A stretch of DNA of 64,000 nt, taken from NCBI RefSeq assembly GCF_019649055.1, contig NW_026570298.1, positions 496,001 to 560,000 on the forward strand, given 5' to 3'. The notes under the pieces are model-generated. The model was not told the DNA's origin. It made no database searches and was given only the letters and a program-made list of their open reading frames with translations. Positions 20,633 to 45,829 of the stretch are shown here, one piece after another. This DNA comes from Paramacrobiotus metropolitanus (taxonomy: Eukaryota; Tardigrada; Eutardigrada; Parachela; Macrobiotidae). Numbering within the stretch: the first letter of the stretch is position 1; every line of letters starts with the position of its first letter. Made by a program: the position numbers and the translations under genes.

Positions 20633-23464
20633 ATGTTGCAAGGTAATCCGCTGAGTTGTTCGACGATTGTACGGCAAAGTGTTGTGGATACATTTACCAA
20701 GTATGTATTCGCTAAATGAGTGGACAATTAGGACATTTAGGATAATACTCTCTTTCCGCCACTTTTATTACTGAAAGTGTAAACCAGGTGAATTTGTGTT
20801 TATAATAAGCGACGCGTACGCTTTAACCGGAACTGCGGTTTCTGAGCAAAGACAGATAGAAACTGGCTTCCGGAAGAGAACAGTCTCCAAAAATTCTGGT
20901 GTTGATTGGCCGATAAATGCGCTATTCATCAAACGGGATTTTTCAACCTTCGCAGGTATGAAACAGCACGCTCCGTGCGCTTCCATTCGCCGTGTATCGC
21001 CATCTGCAATCGACTGGTACAAGCCACCATCATCGCCTATGTTGTTATGTAAGTGATGCGTTGCAAACTGACACATTCCGTCACGGGTCTGTCCGATCTG
21101 ATTTGGTATGATGATTGATGTGTCCCATCACTATCGTGTGCAATAGCGAGATCGTGCTACTCCTCTCCCAAATAAACACAGTTCAGACTGGGTTTTTTCT
21201 CGGTCAAGCAAAGTAGTAAAATGCGCAAGTATATTTTCAAATGTATGCCGTACTTGCAGCGTGGTTTTTATCATGGATAAAGGCTACCAGCGCTCGGAGG
21301 AGGGCGAGAGCAGTGTCGTGGTGCGGGTGGTCGGACTGCAGCAGTCCCTGCGGGAGAACTTCTCCCATCTGGCCGACCGTGATCCCAGCCGACGGGGTTT
21401 AATGAACAAAGCGCTGGGATTAACCTGGGATTCGGTGGACACCAGGGTTCCCGCATTGGTCGGCTAGTGTTCCACAAATCGTAATCCGTTTTTACAGAGA
21501 AAAAAAACGTCCATCGTAATCCCACCGATATAGCCTCATAGCAGCTGCATTACATGTTTAACACTTGAGTTGAACCAATCAATAAATAAATTAAACTATT
21601 ACCAGTATATTATACAGTTAATACAACTCTGGAACTAACTGTACACGGTTGTATTGACAGGAACACAACGCCCTGTTTATTACCACCAAGGTTACTGCTA
21701 CGCCTAAACAAACACAGGGGATCTGCGCTGAAGTACTGAGTTGATTTTTTCTTTCCCATATTCTGGCAGTTATATTGCAGCTGCTCGATTGGTACTATCT
21801 AGGATAAATTCAGTGGTGCAGATTGTATGCGCGATTCAGACTGCGAAGTCGGCCGGTCCATCCATTTGGGCCATGGCTTGCTCACCGGCCACTGCAACCG
21901 GACGACAAACACCTGCAGTGTACATGCCTGGTGCCCGCTGGAAAACAAGGCCAGGTACAAGCAGCAGCGTTGCTGGTATTCCGTAGAATATCGCTGTCAC
22001 TGAAGTAATATGGTTGTTGGAGAATAACACTGTGCTGCTTTGCAGCACGACGATGCTGACAGGTGGTGAACGTCTGACCCTACTCGTGAAAAATTACATT
22101 GTCTTCCCCAAATTTCGCGTTCGAAGGTAAATTAAATTTCACGATTAAGTTCATCTGTCCAAAGCGGATTATGTCATTATGAAAGCGGATTAAGACTTTA
22201 AGGTGTATTCCAGGAGAAACATTGGGGATTTGGATGACAGTTACGTGACAAATTGCTTCTACAATAACGCCACCGATCCACAGTGTCCGGCATTTAATCT
22301 CGGCTATATAATTCGCTTAGCGGGAGAGGATTACGACGAAATGGCACGCCACGTACGTTGCCTAAAAGTACACTTACTGTTTTGGATAGATCTAGAATAT
22401 GCTGTTTTAAATGTAAATTATTCTAAACTACGCATGTACTCTGTACTTTGCCAACGGCAACAGGCCACAGATATTTAGGAGCCGCCGAATTTCCCTTGGC
22501 TGAAACGTGTTCGACCATTTGAAATCTACTTTAATGTCGTGCAAAATGACTTATACAAATTCCAGAAAATCTTGAAGTATATGAATTTACGCATCGTTTT
22601 AAGGCGAATTGTTAAGGTGATCTGTGAATGATGCCCGTGGATTATTGGGTTTATGATAAATTCGTACTAAACACAGGGAGCCATCCTGAGTTTCGGGATC
22701 AAATGGGACTGCGATCTGGACTACCACATTCACCACTGCACTCCCAAGTATTCCTTCCGCCGGCTCGACGAGCGTGAAGGCGTCATCGTACCGGGATGGA
22801 ATCACCGGTAAGCGCGGACAAATTTAGCCTCTTAGCGGGGCATACGATTTTCAAGGGGCGCGATCTCCATCACTGGCATTTGACGGGATACAACAAAACC
22901 GTCGCCGGTATGTGTTGCAGCCGCAGTGGATACTGGGAGGAAGAGGGTGTTTTTACGCGCTATCTGTATAAACACACCGGCATCCGGATCGTCTTCAACG
23001 TAGACGCCGTGGCCAGAAAGTTTAGCTACGTACAGACCACCATCAATCTCGGATCCGGTCTGGGACTGCTCGGCGTGGTAAGGCAACAATCTTGCAATCA
23101 GCTAAGACTTTTCGAAGCCTGTAGTATAGTTCGGCTGCTTGCTATATCCAGCGAATCGCGCACTGTAGTATATAGTACGGCGTAGCCCGTGAATTGGGAT
23201 TTGTCGCTGTGTTAATGCGACAGAAACTGGGGGAAAAGCTTTTGCAAAGTATCGTGTACATTAAATAAGTTTACAGCTTCTCTATAAAAAACGGTAAAAT
23301 TCAGGAGTTTGTAGTCGCGTTTTCATCTGAACGGTTTGCCATTGCAGACGACGATTTTGTGTGATTTCATGCTGTACCACTGCGCTGATCCGCAGAAGCG
23401 CTTCTTTCGATCCCATGCCACCATGGTCGATGTTGACAAGGATGCCGATGGCCAATCTTCGTGA
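20633..23464 (+). CDS. P2X receptor A (ATP-gated cation channel subunit)
   Basis: Ten exons, all phases consistent: 20633-20700, 20956-21048, 21260-21458, 21661-21732, 21803-21954, 22046-22126, 22214-22352, 22677-22807, 22921-23077, 23348-23464; 402 residues. P2X subunits form trimeric plasma-membrane channels opened by extracellular ATP. Visible features: N-terminal YETARSV (the YxTx[KR] kinase motif), TM1 at about 36-57, VFIMDKGYQ, an ectodomain with all ten conserved cysteines (ICAE; five in DC-DC-HC-TC-WC; NC...QC; WDCD...HHC), GIRIVFNV and TM2 in the GSGLGLLG-TTILCDF region. The paired lysines that contact ATP just after the KGY segment are not present (VVRVVG). The NFR motif reads NHR. 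Intron 3 uses a GTCGGC donor. The cytosolic tail is short. Confidence 0.92.
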
Positions 23465-24860
23465 GGCGATGTTGTCCTAAATACTAAGGATGAGAAAGAT
23501 CGTTCAAAGGCGACAGATGCCACTTGTTATTTGATTCATTGGCGTCTTTATTTTTTACCCTTTTCCGTCTGAAAAGTTTTGCTTCTGTTCTTCCAGCTTT
23601 TTATTCCTTATTTAAGTTGAATCTTACAGCTAATAAACTGTCTTTGTCGAGCTTCGTATCTAATTTCAAGCTGATATTGTAAATCTTATTTCTAATTTGG
23701 TGTTCATTGATTTTCTGAGTGCGTCTGAAATACTAGTATCAATTACGACCACTCATATTAGTTAGCTAACTCATATTAGTTTATAACGGGCTAAGTTAGA
23801 TTAGTTATATTAAGTTGAGCAACTCATATTAGTTTCTAACGAGCTGAGTTTACGTAAGTCAAGCGCTAGAGTAGGTATTGTAAGTCGTGAATGTTGCTGA
23901 AGTAGACAAACCACACTATCGCAGCTAGGCCATACTTACATAACATTTTCAGACCTAACATTCACATTTTCATACATTTTCATTTCGTAGTTTATAAAAA
24001 AAATAGGTGTTTGACATAAGATACCGATATTTTTATCAAAGAAGGTTTTTTCCAAAATTTTATCAGAATTTGATGCTATTGCTCATAGTTTTGTAAAATG
24101 TGGATGCCTTACAAACAAGCTCGCACGAAACCAACATGCTCGAGGATTCCAGACCGAATGTGCTGTGTATTCAGCGAAAAAAATTTCCAAAAAAGTTGAT
24201 CCTCCTGCGTACTCATGATGGTCAGTTATTAGCCCGCAGGCCAACACTAAGCCACATGGAAACTAACAGTACTACCAGGCCGTTCAGCCGATAATGTGTG
24301 TCTTGCTGCATGTACGCTGGACCATGGGGCATTTAGTCATTGACTGGTAAACGCGTCACACGCTGAATGTGCGCAATATTCGTAGCCACAACAAACTGAA
24401 CGGCACTTTCACGTTTCGACCCATGCGATTCAGGTCTAGAGTAATCTGTGTAGACAGCAGCAAATATGCAGTGACCAGAGCACATTATCCACGATTCAGT
24501 TTTAATAAAACTGAATCGTGCAAATCCCATTGTTAATTGTTCGTCATAATCCTGTTGAAGCAAGCGCTGTACAGCAAAATTTACAGACTAAAATGTCAAT
24601 TTAAATGTATTCAAATTACGTACGTGTACGGTGTACATACAATTTACGCCATAAATGTGGTTACAGCGATAGGCGATAGCGCTAAGCATGCATACACCTA
24701 TCGGTGTAGCCACATTTGCGGCGTCCACTGTACACATATCTGTAGCGCCGTTGAGCAGTTGCATCTTACCAAGAAAAGGGTTCATCAACGAATCTTATAA
24801 AATTTTTAATGTATCCACAGAATCCGTATTACTCTGTTGTGTTCACCGTTACTAAGTATA
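23465..24860. other. Spacer downstream of P2X-A
   Basis: AT-rich, with repeated 'ACTCATATTAGTT' words at about 23750-23840. A perfect 15-bp hairpin CACGATTCAGTTTTA / TAAAACTGAATCGTG occupies 24490-24520. An imperfect palindrome of about 105 bp lies at 24631-24735. No convincing exon; the frame open at 24100-24294 shows no motif. Confidence 0.4.
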
Positions 24861-24867
24861 CGTTATT

Positions 24868-25011
24868 CGGTCCTCATAAACTGGTCGTCGAAGGAAGACG
24901 AAAGTTTCTGAAACATTACTAGATGGTAGTAGATACCTTCGGTCCTCATAAACTGGTCGTCGAAGGAAGACGAAAGTTTCTGAAACATTACTAGATGGTA
25001 GTAGATACCTA
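24868..25011. repeat. Perfect 72-bp tandem duplication
   Basis: Two copies, 24868-24939 and 24940-25011, that I read as identical. The period is divisible by three, so the minus-strand frame stays open through both (24-residue unit containing FQKLSSSFDDQFMRTE), but nothing else suggests coding. Confidence 0.8.
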
Positions 25012-25113
25012 CCTGCAGAGTATTGTGCATATCATTAGAGCTGTATAACGAAACCAAATTAACGAGGGAATATCCGAACCGCCGATCGGTGATTGGTTTG
25101 TGAAAATGCATGC

Positions 25114-25518
25114 TTAAATGAACAAAATCTGAGCGATTTCGAAATAATGATGATTATGTAAACATGAATATTCAAATCGGTACAATCGCAACTTTTCGTG
25201 CCGTTGTTTCAGCTGATTACTCCCGCGGCGGTGGTCACCGGCTGCAGCGATTCCATCTGCATGAGATTCGCCTGGCCCTTCGCATCGACGAAATCCTCTC
25301 CTTAATGGTTCGCACCGAATGCGGGAAGGTCCGCGAGTGTACCAGCTTCTGCATGGGCACCTTGGTCCAGTACTCCAGTCCAGTACTCCACAATCAAAGT
25401 ACCCTCTGCGGAGCTGCATCTCCCCGAAGGTCAGCTTGCAGCAGGCGCTGAGCAGCTTAACGACCGACAGGATGACCATCATGGACGTGATCATGATGTT
25501 ATTTTTTATCGTTGGCAT
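25114..25518 (-). pseudogene. Decayed or mis-framed small secreted-protein gene
   Basis: From ATG 25518 the minus strand starts like a signal peptide (MITSMMVILSVVKLLSACC). It runs into GC-rich sequence where all three frames are open for a while. Near 25370-25395 a 13-bp unit (GTCCAGTACTCCA on +) is duplicated, which shifts the frame. Downstream frames read plausible peptides (for example FVDAKGQANLMQMESLQPV or LVHSRTFPHSVRTIKERIS), so the original frame is unclear. Family unrecognised. Confidence 0.35.
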
Positions 25519-27690
25519 TTGAAACTTTTGGTGCTTGGTCCAATACGTCTGCCAGTCGCTTGAAGGAAATCGGCAAAAAACTTTACAGTATCAGAACGGG
25601 AGAAAGCCGCTCCACCTGTTTCCTTTTTCTACGTTGACGTCAGAGATTCGACGCGGTTATGCCGAGGGTTTTTTGGGAATTACCCCGTCTCATATTAACT
25701 GGAATGGGTTTTTAATTTAGAAGAAATTCGTGCAAGACGTTGCTTTTTGTTAAACGTACGGAATAAAGTTATGCTAGGCAGTTGTATAACGGTAAAACAG
25801 TATACAGCCTGCACAGTGCGATAGGAGTATGTACGCTTCTACATGCCATCTTATGGCATGCGCTATTTCTACGCTCCAAGAGACCCAGATAACCGCTTAG
25901 AAAAATAACTTTCGAGAAATTCCTCGTACTTCCATGCTATCGTAGAGAAATCAATTGAAAACCATTCTTTCTTGGTGTCTGTTACTAGCTACTGTACAGG
26001 ATTTTCAAAATAGTTTAGCAAGTCATAATCTGTACCTTTATATATAAGGCTCACAAGGGAATAAAAATAAAGTAATAAAAAAAGTAATGGAAACAAAGTA
26101 ATAAAGTAATAAAAAAATAAAGTAAGAAATAAAAATAAAGTAGTAAAAAATCGCTTTTATGTGTAACATTTCTTGTGCTAAACTTCTTCCTGCTACAGCA
26201 TGGTGCACACAGTGCACCCTGATTACTAAGTGAACGACAACCGCATCACCGCATGCGCAACCGGCAAAAAACGTTCGCGATAATTTTTGCCTTTGTGTAT
26301 ATTCAGATTTTTGCCGGGACGTTTTTTTAACCGCCGGCGAACGGTTTTGCCGGCTGCACGCACTCATGCATCTTGCCGTCCCCTTAAGCACCATTCGGCT
26401 TCCGGTTAGCATCCCTTGCCGACCGTGCCAGCCTTTCTCACACACATAGAATACTAGGAAAGTGCACTCGCTTCTGGCGGGCACTGTATGACCGAAGCGT
26501 AGCAATAAGTTTATTATCAATCTTTATCTACTTCGTAGCAAATACTTGTCGAATTCTCGTTACGAGTATGAGATATTTAGAGCAAAATCCCGCAACCAGT
26601 GGAAGCTTTCGGACCGACGAACATTCCACTGTTCTCAGAACGTAATAAAAATTATGGATGGGATTTGTTTGCCGACCGTACTGAAAGCTTTAATATTTTC
26701 TAAAACCTAAAGTGAGATAAATATTTACGGTTTAAATTACGGTGGAGGTAGATCTGAGCCGGCGTAGGCATGGTTTTGCCGGTTGTATAGACGTGTTGCT
26801 TACTTGCTCCTTTATGATTTACGAGAAATCTGGTGACGAGCCTAAATCTTTTTTATTTTTTTCCCATTGAAGCTGACTGCAATAACGTTCCCGACATAAT
26901 ACGAAATTTTACTGTTGCAACATGGGTTGGTGGTTAAATATGGTTTTAGAAATACTTGCACGTTTGACTACTGTAGCCGATCAGGTAAGGGCGCCGATCA
27001 GGTAAGGATGCCTAATGAAACTACGATCAGGTAAGGACGCCGATTGCCCATGCCGGTATTGCGCTTATCACAACGAGCAGCTGTGGCTTCCGTACTTTGA
27101 GGCGTTGCATTTTAATCTTCCTTCCTAGATTTTTCCGTTTGCGTGTGATGTAAAGATTGTGATGCGAAATGAAAAAGTTAAGACCAAAGAAATATATCCC
27201 TGAAAATTCAATAAGCAGCGCAGCACTTGTATATGGCTAGTGACCAGTATATGCGGCCAGCACGCTTATGTACATTTTGGTAGCAAGCCCGCGCATTTGT
27301 GTATTAGGTGGCGGTGACCGACGGACACCATAGTTTGCTTGTGGCTTGAGTATATACGGCCAGTGCGCATATGTGCATTAGGTGGCAATGACCGACGGAC
27401 ACCACTTTTTTCATAAACGCTGAACACAGAGGACCTTCGCTACGCTTCGGTCGATTAGTTAGAATGGCTGTCGTTACAATTCCACTACAGTTTACTCACA
27501 AACGCAGCAGCCGGAAGTAGCGCAATCAACTGTTACTTCATGCTGTATCGTGCGCACGATAACAACAATTACAATCATAGTGCGCACTCTGCAGTACGGA
27601 GTGCGCCGTATGTCTGGGCGGTACTCCGTTTCTTTTGATTGCCGATGCAGTAACTGGATCGCGACATCGGCGTTCTAGTCGGCTGATTAA
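25519..27690. other. Spacer between P2X-A and P2X-B
   Basis: No exon recognised. 26050-26160 is a degenerate 'AATAAAGTAATAAA' simple repeat. 26980-27052 has three copies of GATCAGGTAAGG with short spacers. 27235-27400 carries two or three diverged copies of a segment with 'TATACGGCCAG(t)G(c)GC' and 'GTGGCGGTGACCGACGGACACCA'. Confidence 0.45.
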
Positions 27691-28051
27691 AAATAAGCAG
27701 ACGCAGCTGTTGCGGTGCCGTTGCACTTCCTTTGCCGTTCGACTGCGGTACAATCTACACACTCCCCTCTGCGCTAAGTATAACCAGCGGCGCTGGAGAG
27801 CATCCAAGATGCGATGTTGCAGTCTTGCAGAGGCCAGTGAGTGATTCCCATTAGCCAGAACACATTGGCTTATACTGTACACCCACCGACTTACTGTTAA
27901 TTATTTTTTCACCGCACTACATTTCGGCTTTGGTAACATTGTAACTGTTCTCTCGTCGTTATGTTGATCGTAATCCAGGAATTTGACAGCCTACAGATGT
28001 TAGAGTAATCAGACGGGAAATGCATCGGTTATCCATCCGAGTATCGCTGCC
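27691..28051 (+). promoter_or_regulatory. Conserved 5' flank of P2X-B
   Basis: Counterpart of 20280-20632; blocks of shared sequence extend to the ATG. Divergence is higher than in the exons, as expected for a noncoding flank of a duplicated gene. Confidence 0.45.
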
Positions 28052-31014
28052 ATGTTGGAGGGTAATACGCTGAATTGTGGGACGATTGTGCGGCAGAGTG
28101 TTGTGGATACGTTTACCAAGTATGTGTTTACCTGGATGTGCAACTTAGGACAGTATTCCTTCTCGGCACAATCATTGTCGCAAGCGTAATGAAGTGATTC
28201 CGATTTCTTACAAAGCGTGCCCTTATCAGAGGCAGTGCGAAACATTCGGCGTAATTACTTGCTTTCTGAGTTACTATTAAAAAACACGCTTTTATTCTGT
28301 GGCCAAAATATTCGTCGGCTTGTTGATTTACGAGTATGTCTTTGGTCGGTTGGTTGATTGGCCGGGGCGTGCGGCGGAAAGGGAATAATGTCCTAAATTG
28401 TAGTCATCGGTTAGAAAATTCTTGCAATAGTAGTCTTGCAATAGTAGTCATTCTTGCAATAATAATTCTTGCCCTTGCAGGTATGAAACGGCACGCTCCG
28501 TGCGCTTCCATTCACCGTGCATTGCCATCTGCAATCGGCTGGTACAAGCCACTATCATCGCCTACGTTGTTATGTAAGTGATGCATTATGTGGCATGAGG
28601 GATCGAGTACGGCATGCTGATTGATGCGTCTCATTAGTCAGTCTTCTGTGCAGAGTATCTAGATAAGAACCATGGGATGTTGACGTCCCTTCCTAAAATA
28701 AGTCGTTAAAAATAAGTAAACCGAGTTTTATTTCCTTTCTAACAGAATGGCTAAGTACCATTGGCGGTATAGCCACGGATTGTCATTAATTCTTACCGTT
28801 TGCAATTTTGACTGTGCTTGTAGCGTGGTCTTCATCATGGATCGAGGCTACCAGCGCTCAGAGGAGGGCGAGAGCAGTGTCGTGGCGCGGGTGGTCGGAC
28901 TGCAGCAGTCTCAGCGCGAGAACTTCACCCATCTGGCCGACCGTGACCCCACCCAGCGGAAATTGAAGAACAAAGCGCTGGGATTAACCTGGGACGCGGT
29001 GGACACCATGGTTCCCGCATTGGTCGGCTAGTGTTCTGCAAATCGTCAAACCGTAAACTTCGTTACCCCCGACATATCATAACCTGGCCTTACCTGCTTG
29101 TAACGCTTTAGTACATGAGCTTTACTGCTGCGTTAAAAGCGCTTCCGCCATATGATTTTGCGTAGCACACTCAACTGCCGTCATACATCTCTGGTGCATT
29201 TCATACCGCTTGATAAACATGACCTAATTTTTTTGTCTCTTGAAAAAAAATTTATGTACTAATTTGTTTAACAGGAGAACAACGCCCTGTTCATCACGAC
29301 GAAGGTGACCGCCACTCCTAAGCAGACACACGGGATCTGCGCCGAGGTACTGTATAACGCTGGCTTGATCGTCCTCTTGGGCAGTTATTTGCATGGCTTT
29401 TGGCTGATTGCTTTCCAGGATAAATTCACCGGTGCAGATTGTACGGGCGATTCAGACTGCGAAATCGGCCGGTCCATCCATCTGGGCCACGGGTTACTCA
29501 ACGGCCACTGCAATCTGACCACCCACACCTGTAATGTACATGCGTGGTGCCCGTTGGAGAACGAGACGTCCAGGTGAAACACACGTGCTTTTAGCGTTTG
29601 ACTGGAAAATTGCACTGCTGTCTTTGCAGTACGACCACACTGACTGGAAGCGAACATCTCACCCTTCTTGTTAAAAACTACATTGTCTTCCCCAAGTTTC
29701 GCGTTAGAAGGTAAAAGGTATAGCGAAATCAATAATAAGCTATAGTGAAAGCATTTTGCTTCATTGGAATGTGCTAGGAGGAACTTCGGGGATTTGGATG
29801 ATAGCTACGTGAGCAACTGCGTATTTAATAACGCCACCGACCCGCAATGTCCGGCATTTAATCTGGGATACATCATCCGGTTAGCGGGAGAGGATTACGA
29901 TGAAATGGCGCGCCATGTACGTTACTCACGAGTATTTTTGTATTTTTGTCTATCAGCTACGATTAGCGTGTCCTCGTGCGATAACTCGGTGCGGTTAGTA
30001 ACTAATGACGTTCAACTTATTTAGTACAGTAGCTCTTCTAAAACAGATTGGCTGTTGTAAATTATGTTGGTTCGCAGTCTGGAAATTTGATTTAGCTCGT
30101 TACTGAATTTTTCTGTCTCGCGAATTACGCAGCGTAAGACGGACTATCTTGATGTTGCTGCGTTTGCAATTTTCGCAGGGAGCCATCTTGAGTTTCGGGA
30201 TCAAATGGGACTGCGATCTGGACTTCCACATTCACCACTGCACGCCCAAGTATTTCTTCCGCCGGCTCGATCCACGCGAGGGTGTTATCGTACCGGGATG
30301 GAATTACCGGTAAGTGCGGAATCATTTTTTTATCACGACTGGGTCTGCAATTTTCCCCATGGCGCTTTCTCCATCACAAATGACACTAACTATATTAAAC
30401 TAATAACACTGCCTATATTAAAAGTATTAATAACACTGCCTGTACTTTTCTACAGCCGCAGTGGATATTGGAAAGAAGAAGGCGTCTTCACGCGCTATTT
30501 GTACAAACACACCGGCATCCGGATCGTCTTCAACGTGTACGCCGTGGCCAGAAAGTTCAGCTATGTACAGACCACCATCAACCTCGGTTCCGGTCTGGGT
30601 TTGCTGGGCGTGGTAAGGGACAAGATGTTGGTCGGGATTTGTCCGAACCTTTATCCATGAACTGAATCTAGCATCTTACAAGATACTCAAAACGCTTAAC
30701 ACGGCGTACTAGCGATACATTAATTAATGTATCACGTGAATAGTACGCAGATAGATTTATGTGTCAGCATAATTATTAATAAACAACAAACCACGTAATG
30801 ATCTTCCTGTCTTTTTAGCAGCGATCTCGCTTATTTACAAGTAGCAGAAAGCGGTGAGTGCTGTACAACAATCGCCACCTAAACTGCCTTGTTATTGCAG
30901 ACAACGATTTTGTGCGATTTCATGCTGTATCACTGTGCGAGTCCCCAGAAGCGCCTCTTTCGAGCCAATGCCACCATGGTGGATGTTGACAAAGATACTG
31001 ACGACAGGTCTTGA
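28052..31014 (+). CDS. P2X receptor B
   Basis: Ten exons parallel to copy A: 28052-28119, 28481-28573, 28824-29022, 29275-29346, 29419-29573, 29630-29710, 29778-29916, 30179-30309, 30456-30612, 30901-31014; also 402 residues. Nearly every exon has the same length as in A and the proteins are very similar, so A and B are the younger pair in the array. All ten ectodomain cysteines are present. The post-KGY lysines are absent (VVARVVG). The NFR-equivalent reads NYR, which is closer to the canonical motif than in A or C. A lysine remains before the last ectodomain strand (ARKFSYV). Intron 3 again uses a GTCGGC donor. The tail after TM2 is short and ends DKDTDDRS. Confidence 0.92.
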
Positions 31015-32380: not shown

Positions 32381-32399
32381 GCCTGATAAAATGCCAGAA

Positions 32400-35018: not shown

Positions 35019-35735
35019 CGCAGACTGTACATAGAGTCCGATTTGTACGGCCGTCACACAGTGTGAAGGTCGTACATATCCCACACTATGTACAGTCTGC
35101 GACGAGGATGCTGGCAACGGAGCCGGTGGTGGTTCAGTAGCGGTATCACTGGACAGATCCAATGGAACACTCACAGACTCCATCTCCCTTCGGAAATCCA
35201 GACGAATCGGCGTCAACGGTTTGTACTCGGGAATTGAGGTGTTCCTGGGCTTTAACGCCACACGTAGACGTGTTAATTCACGTACGATATACTGCTCTTC
35301 TGGTTTGACCTCGCAGAACGCCAAATGCGTCAGTTTTGAACTCTTACGCGCCACGCCCCAGGGGTTCTCAGTCCTCGGCCTTTCTTTTGAGCATCATCAG
35401 GATCGGAGGCGTATGTAAATACCTCCGGATCTTCATGTTACTCAAAAGAAATTTCCTAATAACGACATCGCGTTCTAACTCAATGGACGAGTGTGGCGAC
35501 ACATTTGCTTGCATTTGGGGCGCTTGGATCTTGATTCAACGTTAACACAACAGCGCTTTCCTGGGAACGAACCACGGTGTTCCTTCCATCTGACAATGGT
35601 TCCAACTCTTTCGACAGTGGAGCTGCCCTGAAAACCGTCTTTGGAAACCGGTGAAATTGCGCCCGCCAGAAATATTGCAGCAGGAATAATTGTCGAGGAG
35701 TGTTCTACCAGCAGGCTTTTCCCGTGGTCAACCAT
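35019..35735 (-). CDS. Unrecognised nuclear-type protein, partial model
   Basis: The best-supported exon runs from 35379 down to about 35100 and encodes a basic then acidic/Pro-rich chain (EEQYIVRELTRLRVALKPRN, LTPIRLDFRREMESV, TEPPPAPLPASSSQT). It joins in phase, across a 43-nt intron, to an exon ending at 35423 that reads SIELERDVVIRKFLLSNMKIR. An upstream first exon may begin at ATG 35735 (MVDHGKSLLVEHSS) with a GTGGTT donor; that junction is not certain. The 3' end is unresolved and falls in an inverted repeat (35019-35101). No known domain is recognised. It lies inside the extra DNA of the second segmental-duplication copy. Confidence 0.4.
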
Positions 35736-36380
35736 TTTTTTTACGATACACGATTACTGCTTTGTACCCGATCATCCGATGATACCCTACGATGACGTAG
35801 GTATCCCACGTTATCATTTTGTGTAGCGCAAGCAGTTAATACTTTATCTGATAAAGGATTATCTGATTGCTAAATGACGAACATACGCCCACACCCTTCT
35901 GGGTCGATGAAATCCAGACTTTGTTCCCGTTGCCGGTCCAAATAATAGACGTCAACATCAGGCCGATTTTGTCTTCAGTGACTTGCGTAATAGGATGAAC
36001 TTACCGTAACCACAAGATTCGCATCCCTTTTCGGCAATTAAACAAAAATTCCGTCCAGTCGTTAACGCCTACTCGGTATCTTCAATTAGCCAAGAGCAGC
36101 CCGTTTCTTTTTAAAGATCAGGATCCTACTTTAGGTTCTCTTTAAGGTCCTCTGTTGTCGTCCTATAACCCAGAGCGGCCACAATTACAGATTACAGTTT
36201 CTTTTCATAGCTATTGGAGTTTATCCAGTTATTGGCTGAGCGCCTTCCATTTTCCAAGGCCCAGCTGAATCGAGCTTCAGTTCTTTTTTAACCGGGGATC
36301 TATTGCACTGATTTGACTGGAATCCTGGAATTGCGATGGTGCGAATTACAACATTGCACTGACAAACAAATTTTTTCGTC
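35736..36380. other. Intergenic
   Basis: Upstream of the minus-strand gene near 35 kb. No exon recognised. 35772-35815 has 'GATGATACCCTACGATGACGT', a short internally repetitive stretch. Confidence 0.35.
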
Positions 36381-36860
36381 GTCATACCCGTTAATCGCGG
36401 TTTTATCCACTTTGATGTGACACCGAGATTGAGCGACATCCATTAAGTACATACAGTCTGTATACTGAAGCAGTCAAGCCAACATCACGGGAACCTGGCC
36501 AAAGATGCACATCTTCGGCGAGGTTCCTGGGATATTTGGCCGCCAAGCCATGCAGTGGGCCATCGAAAGAGCGATTTCCGCGGAAATCGACAGCTCGCTG
36601 GTCTTCGCCGCACACCTAGTATTTTACGACACACAACCTCAGCGAGCATCTACCCCATATTTTAGCCCTCCATTCTTAAGACGAAACATTTCAAAAAGTA
36701 TAATCAAATAGAATGAAAACGTGCTTTCTCTGTGATTTCCAATATCTTGGATCTTCAGATCCGTATATCGGCACCTGCAGTATGACGCGCAGTAGAGCGC
36801 GTCACGATGAAATTCATCGGTTACCAGTGGCGAAGAACAGATCGATATCCGCGCGGAACT
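36381..36860. repeat. Segmental duplication, copy 2 (3' block)
   Basis: Counterpart of 32985-33410, in the same orientation. Aligned landmarks: TTTATCCACTTTGATGTGACA, AACCTCAGCGAGCATC, GTGCTTTCTCTGTGATTTCCAA and GAAGAACAGATCGATATC. Confidence 0.55.
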
Positions 36861-37308
36861 GCACGCTGATACACGGAACTGCAAGTGCGCATTGTAGCTA
36901 CGTTGACTACGGGATCTATAGATTAGGACGATTTGGTAAACGGTATCACTTTTTCTGGGCACCTTCCCTGACTTGTATCCACAGTATCCCGCCGCATCCT
37001 GCAATAGCGCCCAACGTTGTCTATGGCCCGGTTGGTGCACGTTACATTTTTCAAGGCCTCTACTTTGGCTTGTATGTAAAGTACTTCAAGTACGTATGTG
37101 AAGTACCATAGCATCTTGTATCCTACCGTATTTTTCCAATACTAGAAGTACCCTTTATGTATCCCTCGTGGATTCCACTGTGACGACATCGTCTTTAGTC
37201 GCACCGCATGACCATTAGTCACCGGAAGCCTACGTGCAGGTATGCCCTGCAAATTCCTGCGCGGTCATATGGCATCACGCTGACCGCATATTACATCATC
37301 ATGCCGTC

Positions 37309-37524
37309 ATGCACTCTGTCATTGGCTTGTCGCCACACCAGCCCCACCCATGGCAGCCGAGCCCATCCGGACCAGGACCATATATTGTAAAGCACCCCTC
37401 CACACCGTACCAGACAGTAGTCCGACAGCAGTCCACCAGCAGTCTACCACTCGACTACCAGCCTACACCTGGATTACCTAGCATTAGCATTGTTATTGTG
37501 GGCATAGTTGTTTATATTGAATAA
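37309..37524 (+). CDS. Possible small Pro/Gln-rich protein or last exon with hydrophobic end
   Basis: From ATG 37309 a 71-codon frame reads a Pro/Ser/Gln-rich segment (HQPHPWQPSPSGPGPY, TVVRQQSTSS) and ends in a hydrophobic stretch (SISIVIVGIVVYIE). An AATAAA overlaps the stop region (37522). It is compositionally unlike the surrounding noncoding DNA, but no family is recognised and it may be chance. Confidence 0.25.
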   Translation: MHSVIGLSPHQPHPWQPSPSGPGPYIVKHPSTPYQTVVRQQSTSSLPLDYQPTPGLPSISIVIVGIVVYIE

Positions 37525-37811
37525 AGGTCACTGTCATACGGGTGCGTTGCCTAATCGTTATAGGGACACATAGGTAACACATAAAGGTCATCGTCGACCT
37601 GCACAGGTGTAGCACAGGTGCGCTTACAGGAGAACTCTATACTGCGACACCACTGAGAAATCTAAGACAATTATATCAAGATTGTTACGATAATATGAAT
37701 ATCTATAAATAGTATGTTCTTATTTCTTAAGCAGTTCCAACGTAACAGATCCGCTGTGCTACTGTAGTTCACATCGTATCTACAAGTTCACATCTCTGCG
37801 TTCTCAATCTA

Positions 37812-38057
37812 TACTCGGACCTTTGGGACCAGACGCCTCGGACACTCGGACCTTTGGGACCAGACGCCTCTCGCATGGTCACCGAGCTCGGGTACGAAGA
37901 AACGGGCGAGATACGGGCAATTGAGTATCTGCGCCAGCGGTTCAGCATTGAAATTCAACGCGGAAATGCGGCGCCCGTCATGGAAACAGCACCAGCATCG
38001 GCTAATTTATATGAGATGTTCTGTATAATTAGACCGTCTGTTTCTGTTGTCGGTTGA
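37812..38057 (+). pseudogene. Retroelement nuclease-domain remnant plus 31-bp tandem duplication
   Basis: 37905-38010 encodes TGEIRAIEYLRQRFSIEIQR, homologous to the end of the 55573-56440 fragment. Upstream conserved motifs are missing. Immediately before it, a 31-bp unit (from ACTCGGACCTTTGGGACCAG) is repeated at 37813 and 37844. Confidence 0.6.
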
Positions 38058-38230
38058 GGCTGTGGATTAAGTACATCTTTATTATGATAGAAAAATAGTG
38101 TGAGTTTTGTATACCGCCAAATAAAAAGTAAAAAAATCTCTACATACTGTTCTGTATATAAGCCGGCTACTGTACCATTATGCAATATCATTGTACGAAG
38201 ATGCTACCTAACGACTGAGCAAAGCAGCAT

Positions 38231-38359
38231 ACAGGAGAAAAGCGTTCCCATGAATATTTACGTCAAAGATTGTCGCTGGAGATTCAACGAGGAAATGCGG
38301 CTTCAGTTTTGGGCACAATGGAAGGAGCGGAAAAGTTTAATGAAGTTTTTATGTTGTAA
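38231..38359 (+). pseudogene. Second retroelement nuclease-domain remnant
   Basis: Reads TGEKRSHEYLRQRLSLEIQR, then GNAASVLGTMEGAEKFNEVF and a stop. This is very close to the C-terminus at 55573 (HEFLRQRLSLEIQRGNA, LGTMEGAIALNEILLL). Only the last 42 codons survive. With 37812-38057 it forms a tandem pair of stumps about 300 bp apart, which suggests two insertions or a duplication. Confidence 0.65.
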
Positions 38360-40455
38360 AAACTGATGTTTTTAATTATTGATTAAGATGTTGTACCACA
38401 GGTGAATAAAGTAATGCAAACTGAGCAATACATGGTTAACAAACGCTTACGCAAACCAACATGTATCAAGATACAAGTGGGATACATTAAGGATAAGGAT
38501 ATACAATAAGGATACAATGCACATTAGGATACTGATGCTGTTTATAACCCGCAATGAAGCTGCAGAGTGCAGACTGCAGGATGCGTTGATGACTGTGGAT
38601 AGAGTCTGTACACTTAGAATACTGTGAGTTTACAGTGGCTTTTAAGGGGAGGGCTATGAGATGAAAGTGGGTCTGGGAAAACATGAATAAGTTTAAAACA
38701 ACTGAAAGAACACTGTTGCCATTGTTCTGACTGCATGCGCAAAAGGTTTCGCCACACAATGGTGTGCTGCGATCTTGTCTGCGCTCTGTCTAGACAGAGC
38801 TATTCAAGAAACAAAGAAAAAACTTTGGAATCAAAAGTTGAATGAGAAAGTATTTACGAATGAGATGCAATACACATCATTGGATGTGTTTTAGCCTGGA
38901 AAGCTTATATTCTCCAACATGTTAATAAAAAATGTTGTTAGTTTACAAAAAAATTGAGAAAAACACTTTTTAAAAAGTGTTTTTTTCAGTTTATTCAAAC
39001 ATGCTTTGTTGGATTACAGCGGAGTGTCGGTATATAAGCTTTCTAGAAAATAACACATTATCTGATGCCCATTTGGAAAGTGTAGCAAGTTTTACAATGA
39101 AGTTATCGATTTTTAAAGCCCTTTAACTAGTTTTTGGAAAACGTCAGCTGAATGGAGGGCTTGTTGACTGACCGGCAGCAATGTGTGCCAGAGCCGGCTA
39201 CCCATGCCCGCGCTTGCAGAAAGAGATCAGACAGGACATAGCTTGAGAGGGAAGAATGTGTTTGTTCCGGCCAGAGGACAGCATCAGGTGTTCTGTCTGA
39301 GATCTTCTGGGACATATCTGCCATGTGGCTGGCCATGGCTAGCCGATAACATCACTGCATTTATTACGCCGCTGCTGACCCGGTCATGTTTTTTTACTAA
39401 TAACTTATGATCACAGTTTACGATATCGTATTGGTACACACTCTCTGGAAGCCCGAAAAATTCCCTACAAGCTGATGTTAAAATTAGAAACTTATTAAAC
39501 GAAAAGTCATCTCATAGTGGTCCCCTTAAAGGTGAAACGAATGCAAACACCATTAATTTGAAATTCAGCACGTACAATCTTACATGATTCCCCTTGTTAA
39601 TATGGTCATTCTTTTTAACTCAGAATCCTACAGTATCCTCACATCATCCATTTTACATCCACTGTGTATCCTCTTAATTTTCGTAGACTGCTTTGTTTTC
39701 GTGGGTTTCTTATTGTTAGTACATAGAATAGAGGGTATGCGAGGTACATGAAAGACATATACTTACTACCATCAAACTGTATCTGTACACGCGTGGGATA
39801 CGGCAGAAATAAAAAGGACGTACTGGAAAATTAGAAGTACTTTCCATACATAAACGAACGATCGGATTCGGCAAACTCATAAGTCATGGGCGCTGGTAGT
39901 CGCCTGGAACGTTTTCCCTTGTGAAAACCAGGAGACCAATCAGAATAAGGCATTGACGCTTAACGGCACGTGTTCAGTGGTCTTGTGACGTAAGTGGCTA
40001 AATAGTGTAAACTGCACTAACTTCAGCACTTGTCTTGGTCCCGCTTGTAAACTTGTCTTGGTCTACTTATAAATCATTATAAAATCGCATTAATAAAAAG
40101 CCGTCATCGCACAATACGGAACCAGCGTACGTACAGTACGCATACCGAATGGATATGTGCCACCCGTTATGCAAGCAACAGCAACAAGAAACCGCGATCG
40201 AAATCTCCCGTGCACGGATGCACCCGGGCTGGATGATGGATGCACCGCGCCGCTGTAAATAAAGACACACATACGCTCCCATCAAATCGGATCACAACTG
40301 TCCTGACTATCTTGATCCTGGCGCTGGGTAGCATCTGTATAATCTCCGGCTGTCGACGCCGCGCATCTTCATCGCATGCGCTGACAGTTAGCGTATTGCC
40401 GTTGACTTATAGCGCGGCTTAAAAATGTTTGACTTGATCACTGCTCACCGGCACC
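38360..40455. other. Spacer upstream of P2X-C
   Basis: No firm gene. 38460-38620 is an inverted GTATCC-family copy. A short A/T hairpin (AAAAACACTTTTT / AAAAAGTGTTTTT) lies at about 38961-38985. 39127-39310 is open on the minus strand without a motif. From ATG 40240 a 60-codon frame contains a hydrophobic run (TTVLTILILALGSICIISG) and could be a tiny membrane protein, but it sits in the presumed P2X-C promoter. Confidence 0.35.
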
Positions 40456-43400
40456 ATGCTCCTTAAATTACTGGATCGTGAGCCGCATTGCTCCCGGATT
40501 TTCCGCCACGGTGCTGCGGATATCTTTACAAAGTACGAAATGTGCTGCCTATAAAGTACTGTGTCCCTGTGACTGACTGCATTGCTTATCTGCAGATACG
40601 AAACAGCGCGTTCGGTGCGGTTTAAGTCGCCATGGATCGCCGTGTGCAATCGTCTATTTCAAGGCAGCATTATTGCCTATGTTATCGTGTAAGTTGGCCC
40701 AAGTGCCCAAGTCTTCTGTTAATTTTCCGCCGTACAAAAAATAAATTGTACAGTAATATCGTGCTGTTTATGTGCTCATTTGGTATTCATTTCTTCGGTT
40801 TCATTTTTGAAAATTTTTTTAAAATTTTTTTATTTGATTTTTTAATTCTTAATTGTGATTAGTAAATTTTTGATTTGTAATTTTCTTAGATATTTTTTAA
40901 AGATATTTTAATTTCACTGTTTTAGTATATTGGACGGCAAATACAAGTCGTACGTAATTAATAAAGGTTCATGCAGAACTGTACAGTAATTTTCCATTAA
41001 TATAAATATTCCGGTCAGTGACCTTTAGGGTCTTGATTTGCATGTTATATATCTATCCAAGAACTTACTATAGCGTAAAAGCTATAATAAGTTCTTGATT
41101 TATATTATACGTACGTATTTATCTTAATAATTTATCTTATTTGTATTAAACGTACGAGGACATTTGGGTGCTGTGAACATACCCTGCACGATTAGGCTGC
41201 GATGAACAGCCGGCTAAATTAATGGCAGTCGATTGCCTCAACCGTGTATGCCATCCTGGGCGGCTGGCAAACCAGCCCGTAATGTTACGAAATTGGTCGC
41301 ATCCACGGATTTTAAACAGATTTTCTCCATAGACTGGTATGCTAACTTCAGATGCCTGTCTTTCTTGATTTTGAAAATGAAACTGTTCAAGTCATATACC
41401 AAACGGCAGAAAATTAATTTTCACGGTTTTTGACACCAAACAAGTTGCAGTTTATGGCGTGAAAGACAAGTTACAGCTGTTTGAAGTTTCTCGTAGACAC
41501 AGCATAGAATCGCCGCGTGGGACCTTTGATCGTGAACTGTATGCTAAGTCTACGAGAAAACTAAAATGGCTGTAACTTGTTTCATTTGCCACAAACCACA
41601 ACTTCTTTGGTCTCAAAAATCGTGAAAGTTAATTTTCTGTCGTTTGGTATATGACTTGAACAGTTTCATTTTCAAAATCAAGAATGACACGCATCTGAAG
41701 TTAGCATCCCAGTCTATGGAGAAAATCTGTTTAAAATCCGTGGATGCGACCAATTTCGTAACATTACGGGCTGGTTTGCCAGCCGCCCAGGATGGCATAC
41801 ACGGTTGAGGCAATCGACTGCCATTAATTTAGCCGGCTGTTCATCGCAACCTAATCGTGCAGGGTATGTTCACAGCACCCAAATGTCCTCGTATATCTAC
41901 TCTGTAATCACATTATTACCGTATGTAATTGCGGTGTTTTATTTTAATTTTAAAGGAATATTTTGATCGGTTAATCATTCTCCGATTTCACAGAGTGGTG
42001 TTCATACTAGAGAAAGGCTACCAGAGCACGGAAGAAGGCGAAAGCAGCGTGGTGACCCATGTGATGGGCCTACACATCAATTCGCGGACCAATCTCGCGG
42101 ATTTAGCCATCGACGACACGCGAAATCTGCTTGACCGATCGCTGGGTAGCGTGTGGGATTCCGTGGATACCGTAGTGCCAGCACTGGTTGGTGGCCCTTT
42201 CCTATATCCCACGATATTGTACAAGCACAGATATAATTTCATGTCTGCAGGAAAACAGCGCTCTTTTTATCACCACCAAGGTAATGGCCACACCCAAGCA
42301 AGTACAGAGTGTCTGCCCTGAGGTACGCAGTTTACCCATAATATTGAAATTTTATCGATCAAAGTTTAAAAATAAGAAAACGATTATATTAGAAAAGGAA
42401 TAAAATGACTCAGTATGAACGAAAAGCAAAAAATGTTCCAGCTAACAAAAGCAAAAACACATGACATTGGATTTAATATTAATATTAACCAGTGCACCCG
42501 TTTGATAAATACCGCACAAATTATAAATAAAAATTTAAAAAAAAACAGAGCAAGTAACCAACGAAATAGTACTGGAATAATTAATAAAAAACAATAAAGA
42601 TAAAAATGAAAAAGTATTTGATTAATTTAACTTACGGTAGTTAGCCATGGCCAGTACCTTTGGCCGATAACCGCAGAGAACGACAAGACAGTATTTTTTC
42701 ATATGGCAAGATTTTTGCAGTTAAAAAATTCCGGAGCCAACTGCATCAGCCATGCGGACTGCCTACCCGGGCGGTCGATCCATCTGGGCCATGGATTCAC
42801 GACTGGTCAGTGTAACAACGCCACCAAAACGTGCAATGTGGCAGCATGGTGTCCGTTGGAGAATAAAACCCTAAGGTGACCTTTTTCGTAAATAAATTAT
42901 TTCTTACTCTACGCACAGCGACGTATTTATAGTACGGCGCTGTTAGTTGGAGGGGAGGAGCTGGTTCTTCTGGTTAAGAATTACATCGTCTTCCCGGATT
43001 TTAATATAAGAAGGTAACGGTTTCAAGAATCCCTGGGAATCATCTGCGATTTTTATACCGAGCGTTGTGGAAATATTTAGGAGAAATTTTGGTGATCTGG
43101 ACGAAAGCTACGTAGCCAACTGTTCATATAACAACGCCACGGATCCGCATTGTCCGGCTTTTAATCTGGGTTATATTATCAAACAAGCTGGGGAAAATTA
43201 CAGCGAAATGGCCTCGCATGTAAGTCACTGATTCTACCGGTTAAAATAATACTTAAACAAATAACTAATAAATGAAAGAAATTTTCAAATTACGTTAATG
43301 TTTAATTTAATAAATATAGATATTTTTAAGATATTTTGTAAGAATAAAAAATAAAATTTCTCCGTTCGACAAATGCTCCAAAAAACAGTTGTGAGTTTTC

Positions 43401-45829
43401 CTTATCTAGCTTCTAGCAGGTTATTAGCACGTAATATTCGGCAATTATATCCGCGATATGTATCGCATTTCCGTGATGAAATATGAGAGTTTTTGGCCGG
43501 AGCACTTGACAAATAAATCAAGCCGTACACATTGGATAATTAACTGTTAACCATCATCCAGTATGTTTACAGTATCCAGAGACGCACGCTGTCGGGGTAC
43601 GAGTACTATACCTGCTAAGTGGATATTTTCAGCAATTTTACAACACATGCTGCCATGATGTTGGGTGTGTATTTCGGTGGTGTGTTCGTGCCTTGGCAGC
43701 TGTACAGCTTGTTCATGATCGTAGCGTGAATGTTTTATGACAGCATCGGTATGCTCTGCTGATCCCCCGCACAAATTTCTCATGATTGACTTGCGTGCGA
43801 AAGCACTTTCTTTGGTCAACTAGATTCCGTTCCTCTGCTTGCAGTTTTGTTATCGTCAGCCGCCGAAGTTGACCGAACAGAGAACAGCTTAATAAAGGCA
43901 ATAAACGAACCTATACCCAGCAAAAAATCTTTATTTGTATAATTATATGTATCTGTATAATTAATTATCCTGAATTCTTGTAAAAACTGACAAAAATTAA
44001 ATGTTAAAAATGAAGATTAATTTACTGATGTGGCCACTGACAATTCGCCGTATTACTTAACTTTTTATTTAATGGAAATGTACAAGTACCTCGTATACGA
44101 AAATTTTAGGTAGATATGTATTTGCAGTTTACTCTAAATTTGTACCAACAGGGCGCCATACTAAGCTTCGGCATTAAATGGGACTGCGATCTGGATTTCC
44201 ACATCTACCACTGCATGCCGACGTATTCATTCCGCCGACTTGACGAGAAAGAGGGCGTTATCGTTCCCGGATGGAACCACCGGTAAGGTATACTACAAAA
44301 CTGCTGCAAAAAGATAATTGCGAAAAACAGTATTAAAATACACGCATTACATTACGCACATACAGTAAAACCTGTGTAATTTCAACACCTACCTACGGTT
44401 CCTTTAAAGTGTTCAATGTAATCAGCTGTTCAATATTCGCAGTAGTCTTCGCAGTATACGAGACGCGCCGGTTCCTATACGGTCGTTCAATCTTCGCAGT
44501 TACTCAATTTTCGCAGTTGTTCAAGCTCACAGAGTTTACTGTACATGTGCGTAACGTACATTACATGTACATAACGTATATTTCGTACATTACATGTACA
44601 TAACGTATATTTCGTATATTACATGTATAAGCTTGTCTGGTAATTTCCTACGTAAAGGTACAGCTAGCGCGAAATTTGCGCTTAAAACGATGGCCACGTC
44701 ACTACGTTTGTCGCATCACGTAAATGCGCTCCGGAGCTAGATTGTCCCTTACTGCACAGACCAATTTCTAGCCGCCTTCCGCCAGGCAATTACGATCATT
44801 ATCATTAAAATATTTGGCGTGCACCAAGCCGCCAGCCAAGCAAATGCAAGTTACGTGCTTAAACATTGTGGCGTGGCGCGCCGTAGTAGCGATTTACGCG
44901 TAACCCGTAAATTTATAAAATTCGCTGTATTGATTCGTCAGAAATTACCGGACAAGCTTGTACTCTGTACATAAAATGTATTACATTACATGTGCAACTT
45001 CTGCAAAGGAATCAGTAAAAATTACAGAACACGATCGTTCTAAACATGTTAATAAATGGATTTTAAGGTACCTAATTTGTTAGGCGGACTGGTTACTGGG
45101 AAGAAGACGGCGTCTGGACGCGCTATCTGTACAAGCACACCGGCATCCGCATCGTCTTCAACGTGGACGCCCTGGCACGGAAATTCAGCCTTGTCCAGAC
45201 CACCATCAATATCGGTTCGGGTCTGGGCCTACTGGGCGTGGTAAACATAACTTCGTTCTTCGTGATTAATGGCTGTTTGGATGCTACGGAATCTACACCA
45301 TTAGTCTCACCGGTTAATCTTGTAATCTCTTTGGCAGGCGACGATACTGTGCGATTTCATGCTGTACCACTGCGTGGGACCGGACGACCGGGCCTTTCAC
45401 TCGCACGCCACGACTGTTGATGCCGGCGACGCGGGCGAACCGGAAAATGAAACATTGTGGTCGCGGACCATCCGTGTCGACGTCGACGACAAAAACTCGC
45501 TGACCAACCCACCGGACGATGGGAAATCGGGGTCCCTGCATTCGCACGTCGCCGGCATCGTTGCCGGGGACGAGGAGCCGGCGATCAGCCGACCGGACGA
45601 CGGGACAGCAACAGACGTCCTTCGTACGCGTATCGATACCGGCGACCAGGATCCCGCGGTTATTGACGCACCGGACGACGCACCATGGACGCGTGCTATT
45701 ACTGTCTACGCCGACGACCCGGAACCGGAAAAAGACGAATCGGAAGACAAGGAACCACCCTCGGACACCACCAATCCCGACACGATTGATCAAGACGACG
45801 TGGAACTCCTTCGTGAAACTACGGTGTAG
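40456..45829 (+). CDS. P2X receptor C with long acidic repeat tail
   Basis: Ten exons, all in phase: 40456-40532, 40596-40688, 41994-42186, 42251-42322, 42721-42875, 42933-43013, 43081-43219, 44152-44282, 45084-45240, 45338-45829; 529 residues. The channel core matches A and B (YETARSV, VFILEKGYQ, all ten ectodomain Cys, GIRIVFNV, ATILCDF in TM2). The post-KGY lysines are missing (VVTHVMG) and the NFR motif reads NHR. The last exon is much longer than in A and B: about 150 residues after TM2, strongly acidic, with three to four units of 22-27 residues carrying P-x-D-D (NPPDDG, SRPDDG, DAPDDA). It ends VELLRETTV. Intron 2 contains foldback element 2 (41155-41891). An AATAAA follows the stop at 45883. 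It is the more diverged member of the array. Confidence 0.92.
41059..41095. repeat. Short hairpin in P2X-C intron 2
   Basis: AAGAACTTACTATAGC pairs with GCTATAATAAGTTCTT (one mismatch) across a 5-nt loop, about 60 bp left of the foldback element. Confidence 0.6.
41155..41891. mobile_element. TA-flanked foldback/MITE-like element 2
   Basis: A 737-bp near-perfect palindrome inside P2X-C intron 2. Ends CGAGGACATTTGGGTGCTGT and its reverse complement abut TA on both sides (41153-41154, 41892-41893). Both arms encode the same 66-codon open frame, which follows from the symmetry and is not evidence of a gene. The central hairpin TTTCTCGTAGAC...GTCTACGAGAAA and the nearby AACTAAAATGGCTGTAACT region resemble element 1 (18348-19120) in opposite orientation. 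The arms differ at few positions, so the insertion or its last correction is recent. Confidence 0.8.
44555..44628. repeat. 29-bp tandem repeat in P2X-C intron 8
   Basis: Unit CGTACATTACATGTACATAA plus CGTATATTT, two full copies (44555 and 44584) and a partial third from 44613. Confidence 0.8.

What the first reader, a model, noticed from the sequence alone, without database searches (positions are those of the whole stretch)
20633..45829. Tandem array of three P2X channels that keep the disulfide scaffold but lack the usual ATP-site lysines
All three proteins keep ten ectodomain cysteines, both membrane spans and the N-terminal YxTx[KR] motif. After the conserved KGY segment, where P2X receptors normally carry the paired Lys that bind ATP phosphates (T-K-V-K-G type), they read VVRVVG, VVARVVG and VVTHVMG. 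The NFR motif is NHR, NYR and NHR. Either ATP is bound differently, the ligand differs, or the subunits work only as partners in heterotrimers. Seeing it in all three copies means the loss predates the duplications.
Basis: partly seen in the sequence, partly recalled or inferred. Interest (0 to 1): 0.75.

Follow-up and report, generated by a model that had tools for sequence, protein, structure and literature searches.

The report
P2X channels with altered ATP pocket
Three neighbouring genes in what is probably a tardigrade genome encode intact channels of the ATP-receptor (P2X) family whose changes at the family's most conserved positions fall almost only on the ATP-binding pocket, so they probably work as partner subunits or answer to a different signal.

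Summary
Three complete ten-exon P2X genes (402, 402 and 529 aa) lie at 20633-23464, 28052-31014 and 40456-45829. All keep ten ectodomain cysteines, two membrane spans and YETAR. In hP2X4 numbering K67/K69 are R/V, R/V and H/M; NFR is NHR, NYR, NHR. K190, N293, R295 and K313 stay. The host assembly (consistent with Paramacrobiotus metropolitanus) holds at least 15 P2X genes. Eleven keep both lysines. One on another contig, C33a, reads K67/V69 and is the trio's sister (99.8/100). The simplest reading is stepwise loss: K69 before, K67 after, the split from C33a. Of 45 columns invariant in 15 background P2Xs, the trio changes 4 of 5 pocket columns and 0 of 40 others. W1/W2 dN/dS is 0.08. These look like maintained channels with a remodelled ligand site, not decaying genes. 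The damage falls mainly on one subunit face of the site (K67, K69, I229; T186 in one); the phosphate-contact residues of the opposite face stay, though F294 there is changed. Best guess: heterotrimer partners of ordinary P2X subunits. A different ligand or altered ATP binding remains open. No function was measured.

The parts
20633..23464 (+). P2X gene 1 (W1), 402 aa; exons 20633-20700, 20956-21048, 21260-21458, 21661-21732, 21803-21954, 22046-22126, 22214-22352, 22677-22807, 22921-23077, 23348-23464
   Evidence: Spliced models, GT-AG junctions, no internal stop; Pfam PF00864 334.9 bits
28052..31014 (+). P2X gene 2 (W2), 402 aa; exons 28052-28119, 28481-28573, 28824-29022, 29275-29346, 29419-29573, 29630-29710, 29778-29916, 30179-30309, 30456-30612, 30901-31014
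   Evidence: PF00864 329.6 bits
40456..45829 (+). P2X gene 3 (W3), 529 aa with a 151-residue acidic C-terminal tail; exons 40456-40532, 40596-40688, 41994-42186, 42251-42322, 42721-42875, 42933-43013, 43081-43219, 44152-44282, 45084-45240, 45338-45829
   Evidence: PF00864 346.8 bits
21324..21332 (+). W1 codons at hP2X4 67-69: R67 (CGG, 21324) and V69 (GTC, 21330)
28888..28896 (+). W2 codons at hP2X4 67-69: R67 (CGG, 28888) and V69 (GTC, 28894)
42058..42066 (+). W3 codons at hP2X4 67-69: H67 (CAT, 42058) and M69 (ATG, 42064)
42964..42966 (+). W3 V186 (GTT) in place of T186; W1 and W2 keep T186
22290..22292 (+). W1 A229 (GCA) in place of I/V at the adenine contact; the same change at 29854 (W2) and 43157 (W3)
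22800..22807 (+). W1 N293-H294-R295 (R295 codon split by a phase-2 intron, last base in the next exon); the same place at 30302 (W2, NYR) and 44275 (W3, NHR)

Best explanation
[quoted passage not shown] T186 in W3) has been dismantled, while the phosphate-contact residues of the opposite face (N293, R295, K313) and the rest of the channel are kept. Most likely mechanism: they cannot be opened by ATP as ordinary homotrimers but join ordinary P2X subunits in heterotrimers. In a trimer of two ordinary subunits and one W subunit, the ordinary-ordinary interface and the interface to which W gives only its N293/R295/K313 face keep their contact residues, and the third interface is blind; two occupied sites are thought by several groups to suffice for opening. 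W subunits would then set ATP sensitivity, kinetics or location. Shown here: intact gene models, nearly pocket-limited change at family-invariant columns, purifying selection. Inferred: order of loss, loss of ATP gating as a homomer, heteromeric assembly, its effect.
For: Of 45 columns invariant in 15 background P2Xs, the trio (and trio plus C33a) changes 4 of 5 pocket columns and 0 of 40 others (Fisher 3.4e-5); of 11 other genes or overlapping groups tested the same way, none gave p under 0.1. W1/W2 dN/dS 0.083 at dS 0.6. In hP2X1 K68R is non-functional, K68A >1800-fold, F291A 160-fold (PMC3874471 Table 1, passage). In zebrafish P2X4 subunit B gives K70, K72, T189, L191, I232, L217 and subunit A gives N296, R298, K316 (PMC3866589 section 6). 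The trio differs from hP2X4 at 4 of 6 (W1, W2) or 5 of 6 (W3) of the first set and 0 of 3 of the second. Co-expressed P2X6 rescues ATP-site mutant P2X2, taken as support that two sites suffice (PMC3866589, passages). Eleven paralogues keep both lysines and could be partners, though one of them, C33b, lacks N293 and R295.
Against: F294, on the 'kept' face, is H or Y in the trio. L214V, one of the counted changes, also occurs in C33c, and hP2X1 has M there. R295 and K313 also have gating roles (PMC3874471), so their retention need not mean ATP contact. The half-site asymmetry (4 of 6 against 0 of 3 in one lineage) is too small to be tested. K70A in hP2X1 costs only 5-fold. BzATP labelling data fit a model in which three sites must be filled (PMC3866589, passage). 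Dictyostelium P2XA lacks the K68 equivalent and NFR yet is ATP-gated. No evidence of co-expression or assembly was available.
Confidence: 0.45

Rival explanations
1. The trio forms homotrimers gated by something other than ATP (another anionic metabolite, a peptide, a proton or metal signal) bound in the remodelled pocket.
For: Changes at the 45 family-invariant columns are confined to the pocket while 40 of 40 others are kept; purifying selection; R296 appears in trio plus C33a only (4 of 4, 0 of 15 background), beside NxR, so that region gained charge while the other face lost it.
Against: Pocket positions 67, 69 and 186 differ among C33a, W1, W2, W3 (K/R/R/H, V/V/V/M, V/T/T/V), which looks more like relaxed constraint than one new ligand; no candidate ligand.
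Confidence: 0.27
2. They are still ATP-gated homomers with low potency or a shifted binding pose, using R67, K190, R295 and K313.
For: K190, N293, R295 and K313 kept in 3 of 3; W1 and W2 keep a positive charge at 67; Dictyostelium P2XA works without the K68 equivalent and NFR; K70A in hP2X1 costs only 5-fold.
Against: K68R is non-functional in hP2X1; W3 has H67, M69 and V186 together; the adenine contact I229 is A in 3 of 3, I or V in 15 of 15 background sequences. In Dictyostelium P2XA, mutating the lysine equivalent to K69 lowers ATP potency; the trio lacks that lysine.
Confidence: 0.2
3. Complementary half-sites: the trio (which keeps N293, R295, K313) pairs specifically with C33b (D293, W295 but K67, K69, T186, I229 intact), so that a complete ATP site exists only at the mixed interface.
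For: C33b changes only R295 among the 46 columns invariant in the other 14 background sequences (1 of 6 pocket, 0 of 40 other) and keeps all six residues of the other face.
Against: A mixed W/C33b trimer has only one complete site, and at least two are thought to be needed; ordinary partners would serve better; one gene only.
Confidence: 0.05
4. Pseudogenes or errors in the assembly or models.
For: None found; but no transcript was available.
Against: ATG to stop, ten exons, GT-AG, core intron positions shared with C33a and C33b, no stops; dN/dS 0.08; the same site changed in three genes.
Confidence: 0.03

Closest known systems
HdP2X of the tardigrade Hypsibius dujardini (PMC2633282)
   Same: P2X of a tardigrade, ten ectodomain cysteines, two membrane spans
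   Different: HdP2X has the ATP-site lysines, NFR and FT and is ATP-gated (EC50 44.5 uM) (passages); the trio lacks K67/K69.
Dictyostelium P2XA
   Same: P2X channel without the first lysine (hP2X1 K68) and without NFR, yet ATP-gated
   Different: P2XA also lacks the cysteines and keeps the lysine equivalent to K69; the trio keeps all ten cysteines and lacks both lysines
Ephydatia muelleri Em0004g666a (PMC11883242)
   Different: Reported there as lacking the characteristic P2X motifs; the trio keeps 40 of 40 invariant columns outside the pocket. The sponge sequence itself was not compared
Mammalian P2X6
   Same: A subunit for which functional homotrimers are doubtful but which joins others (passages)
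   Different: The failure is described as ER retention and lack of trimers, not as loss of the ATP site; P2X6 rescues ATP-site mutant P2X2

Membership tests
P2X receptor family | Match to the curated family profile over the whole length | tested here: met
   PF00864 334.9, 329.6 and 346.8 bits against cut-off 27, profile 3-346 of 361
P2X receptor family | Ten conserved ectodomain cysteines | tested here: met
   10 of 10 in 3 of 3
P2X receptor family | Two membrane spans with intracellular YxTx[KR] | tested here: met
   Hydropathy peaks near both ends; YETAR in 3 of 3
ATP-gated P2X receptor (canonical binding site) | KxKG lysines K67 and K69 | tested here: not met
   R/V, R/V, H/M
ATP-gated P2X receptor (canonical binding site) | K190, N293, R295 and K313 | tested here: met
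   Kept in 3 of 3
ATP-gated P2X receptor (canonical binding site) | F294 of NFR; F185 and T186 of FT | tested here: not met
   F294 is H, Y, H; F185 is L in 3 of 3 (but also I, V or L in 7 of the 11 own background genes); T186 kept in W1 and W2, V in W3
ATP-gated P2X receptor (canonical binding site) | Opening by ATP | not testable with these tools
   Needs recording
P2X receptor family | Trimeric assembly | not testable with these tools
   Spliced proteins fall outside the stated rule of structure prediction; no assembly assay
P2X receptor family | C-terminal YxxxK retention motif | tested here: not met
   Absent in 3 of 3, but found in only 1 (C10) of 15 own genes, so not diagnostic here; tails of C14b, C32 and C1b are uncertain

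The most novel reading that the evidence does not exclude
A tardigrade lineage has taken the P2X channel fold away from ATP: W1-W3 form channels gated by a different ligand through a remodelled pocket, and the paralogues C33c, C33a, W1/W2 and W3 display graded stages of that change inside one genome.
Probability: 0.25. Interest if true: 0.82.

Novelty: new variant of a known kind. Interest (0 to 1): 0.57.

Why it matters
P2X channels are defined as ATP-gated, and the paired lysines are central to the site. A series of paralogues in one animal, from both lysines (C33c, though with S293 and V214) through K67/V69 (C33a) to both changed (trio), with 40 of 40 family-invariant columns outside the pocket untouched, is a natural mutagenesis experiment. 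It lets one ask directly whether subunits without a full ATP site act as partners, how many sites a native trimer needs, and whether the fold can serve another ligand. The genome also holds at least 15 P2X genes, whereas a 2021 paper states that tardigrades contain one receptor (PMC7943599, passage).

Tried and rejected
Pseudogene, frameshift and sequencing-error readings were rejected.

A second copy of the KxKG exon, as a possible alternative exon, was looked for with W1 as query: only one match to that exon per window gene was listed.

Corrections on the way: an early note took the lysine of GKF for K313; numbering from the printed hP2X4 chain corrected this: K313 is the lysine of LIKAYGIRF and is kept in 15 of 15 own genes. 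The W1 model held a spurious intron and was replaced. The R printed before YETAR in the models belongs to the acceptor site; the residue is K.

A search for relatives in viral contigs gave 151 pattern matches and no relative. A literature search on loss of ATP sensitivity and paralogues held 1,503 papers at 3 of 6 terms; the 12 listed were not about P2X. A search for tandem repeats in the acidic tail of W3 found none.

C-terminal YxxxK was considered as a sign of partner dependence and dropped, since only 1 of 15 own genes has it. Structure prediction was not run, because its stated rule admits only proteins read letter for letter from the DNA, and these are spliced. The own genome was not searched for co-regulated genes, and no transcript data were available.

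Model limits: last exons of C14b, C32 and C1b are uncertain; C14a, C14b, C23 and C33c carry extra short exons in the models. S293-F294-R295 of C33c rest on one 45-base exon.

Caveat on the enrichment: K67, K69 and the NFR position were flagged in the finding before I defined the 12-position pocket set, and the four genes are one lineage, so the p-value is optimistic; the unflagged parts are 0 of 40 elsewhere, T186 and I229. With other backgrounds the result is less clean: 13 sequences, 48 invariant columns, 5 changed in trio or C33a, 4 of them pocket (the fifth D170; Fisher 1.3e-4); 11 sequences without C33b and C33c, 51 columns, 7 changed, 4 of them pocket (the others G29, D129, D170).
Full report
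What is there. The window lies in contig C78 (496001-560000) of an assembly of 169,799,020 bases in 533 contigs whose contig C1 is 4,484,719 bases long. The published Paramacrobiotus sp. TYO assembly is 170,483,395 bases in 684 scaffolds with a longest scaffold of 4,484,941 (PMC8277472, passage); PMC11191345 gives a 170 Mbp genome and a longest scaffold of 4.48 M for P. metropolitanus (passages). The match is close but not exact, so the species is inferred, not proven. All three are full-length P2X by Pfam; W1 matches 35 distinct PDB sequences at E up to 0.001, best 1.2e-65 to P2X4.

The residues. In hP2X4 numbering positions 67/69 are R/V (W1), R/V (W2), H/M (W3). F185 is L in all three; T186 is T, T, V; L188 and K190 are kept; L214 is V; I229 is A; N293, R295 and K313 are kept; F294 is H, Y, H; position 296 is R. 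R295 is a codon CG|N split by a phase-2 intron in W1-W3; the corresponding codon in C33b is TG|G, tryptophan.

The rest of the genome. A Pfam search (70 matches) and a search with W1 itself (72 matches) hit the same nine contigs and resolve to 15 gene models, a lower bound by the tool's own note: three in the window, three in tandem on C33, two on C14, two on C1, and one each on C10, C23, C32, C49 and C138. Eleven of the 15 have both K67 and K69; C33a has K67 and V69; the trio has neither. The tree (LG+I+G4; labels SH-aLRT/ultrafast bootstrap) gives (W1,W2) 87.3/87, the trio 98.9/100, trio plus C33a 99.8/100, and these with C33b and C33c 100/100; the pairing of C33b with C33c is not supported (6.8/51). 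The simplest reading is that K69 was lost before C33a and the trio parted, and K67 afterwards; whether R came before H is not resolved.

Targeted change, not decay. With 15 background sequences (2 human, zebrafish, tick, 11 own), 45 columns between residues 30 and 345 are invariant. The trio changes 4 of the 5 that belong to a 12-position pocket set taken from the literature (K67, K69, F294 in 3 of 3, T186 in W3 only; K313 is kept) and 0 of the other 40; adding C33a gives the same counts (Fisher 3.4e-5; single genes 0.0007 to 3.4e-5). Of 11 other genes or overlapping groups run as controls, pocket changes were seen in the two sets containing C33b (R295W, 1 of 6) and in C1a (K190R, 1 of 6); none had p under 0.1. 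Changes outside the pocket ranged from 0 to 7 columns in the controls. Earlier runs with fewer background sequences and no position limits were less clean: 5 of 48 columns changed, one outside the pocket (D170), and 7 of 51, three outside (G29, D129, D170). The p-value is optimistic, because the finding had already named three of the positions and the four genes are one lineage. W1 against W2 has dN 0.050, dS 0.606, ratio 0.083; W1/W3 and W2/W3 have dS near 2 (ratios 0.090 and 0.111, unreliable); dS could not be computed for the other pairs of the six-gene group.

What mutagenesis says. In the review PMC3874471 (passages), hP2X1 K68A loses more than 1800-fold and K68R is non-functional; K70A loses 5-fold and K70R 18-fold; N290A 60-fold; F291A 160-fold; R292K/A 90-120-fold; T186A 6-fold. 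Loss of the second lysine is milder in hP2X1 than in P2X2, where K71A gives a major decrease (rat) and K71C is non-functional (human). W1 and W2 carry the K68R-type change plus V at the second lysine plus a changed NFR phenylalanine; W3 carries H and M plus V186. Against this, Dictyostelium P2XA lacks the K68 equivalent and NFR and is ATP-gated (PMC2633282 and PMC3853471, passages), though mutating its lysine equivalent to K69 lowers ATP potency.

Which half of the site. In zebrafish P2X4, one subunit gives K70, K72, T189, L191, I232 and L217, and its neighbour gives N296, R298 and K316 (PMC3866589 section 6). Compared with hP2X4, the trio is changed at 4, 4 and 5 of 6 positions of the first set and 0 of 3 of the second. 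C33b is the reverse: 0 of 6 and 2 of 3 (D293, W295); C33c has 1 of 6 (V214) and 1 of 3 (S293). This suggests, but does not show, that the trio still offers one usable face to a partner. The counts are small, F294 on that face is changed, and R295 and K313 also have gating roles.

How it most likely works. I favour heterotrimer partners of ordinary P2X subunits (0.45), then homomers with another ligand (0.27), then ATP-gated homomers with an altered site (0.20). The residue losses are shown; loss of ATP gating and assembly are inferred. In support of feasibility, P2X6 rescues P2X2 with defective ATP sites, and several studies conclude that two occupied sites open the channel; one labelling study fits three better (PMC3866589, passages).

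Known or new. The protein family is known. P2X sequences lacking parts of the ATP motif are also known: Dictyostelium P2XA and a sponge sequence described as lacking the ATP-binding consensus (PMC11883242, passages). My searches (P2X with tardigrade, 15 of 15 listed; with tandem, invertebrate and lysine terms, 13 listed of 15; with Paramacrobiotus, 1 of 1; residue terms, 15 listed of 1,121 and 7 of 7; KxKG, 2 of 2; evolution terms, 15 listed of 36; loss-of-sensitivity terms, 12 listed of 1,503) list no paper whose title or abstract start speaks of a tardigrade P2X expansion or of animal P2X subunits with pocket-limited loss. Most papers were seen only as listings, and subscription journals are mostly not in that library. 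I call it a new variant of a known kind.

Noticed in passing
G000 C33:1056350-1059698 (C33b core exons, in L009/L010): A P2X paralogue with both lysines but D293 and W295 in place of N and R: the opposite half of the ATP site is changed.
   Followed up: partly
G000, contigs C1, C10, C14, C23, C32, C33, C49, C78, C138: At least 15 P2X genes in one genome, against the published statement that tardigrades contain one receptor.
   Followed up: partly
window 41153-41893: An inverted repeat of 354 nt arms, 93% complementary, 33 nt apart, within an intron of P2X gene 3; looks like a hairpin or mobile-element remnant.
   Followed up: no
window 45374-45826: A 151-residue acidic C-terminal tail on P2X gene 3, against 25-26 residues in genes 1 and 2; no tandem repeat found at DNA level.
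   Followed up: partly
L001 (C14a, C14b) and L010 (C33c): N293 of the ATP site is S in three paralogues that otherwise keep both lysines; in C33c this rests on one 45-base exon.
   Followed up: no
window 46949-47440 (-): Open frame matching RIB43A (56 bits, cut-off 28.9), from recall a ciliary microtubule protein family.
   Followed up: no
window 449-997 (+): Immunoglobulin-domain exon (Ig_3, I-set above cut-off) of a neighbouring gene.
   Followed up: no
window 5499-6005 (-): Weak match, below cut-off, to the N-terminal domain of glycosyl hydrolase family 31.
   Followed up: no
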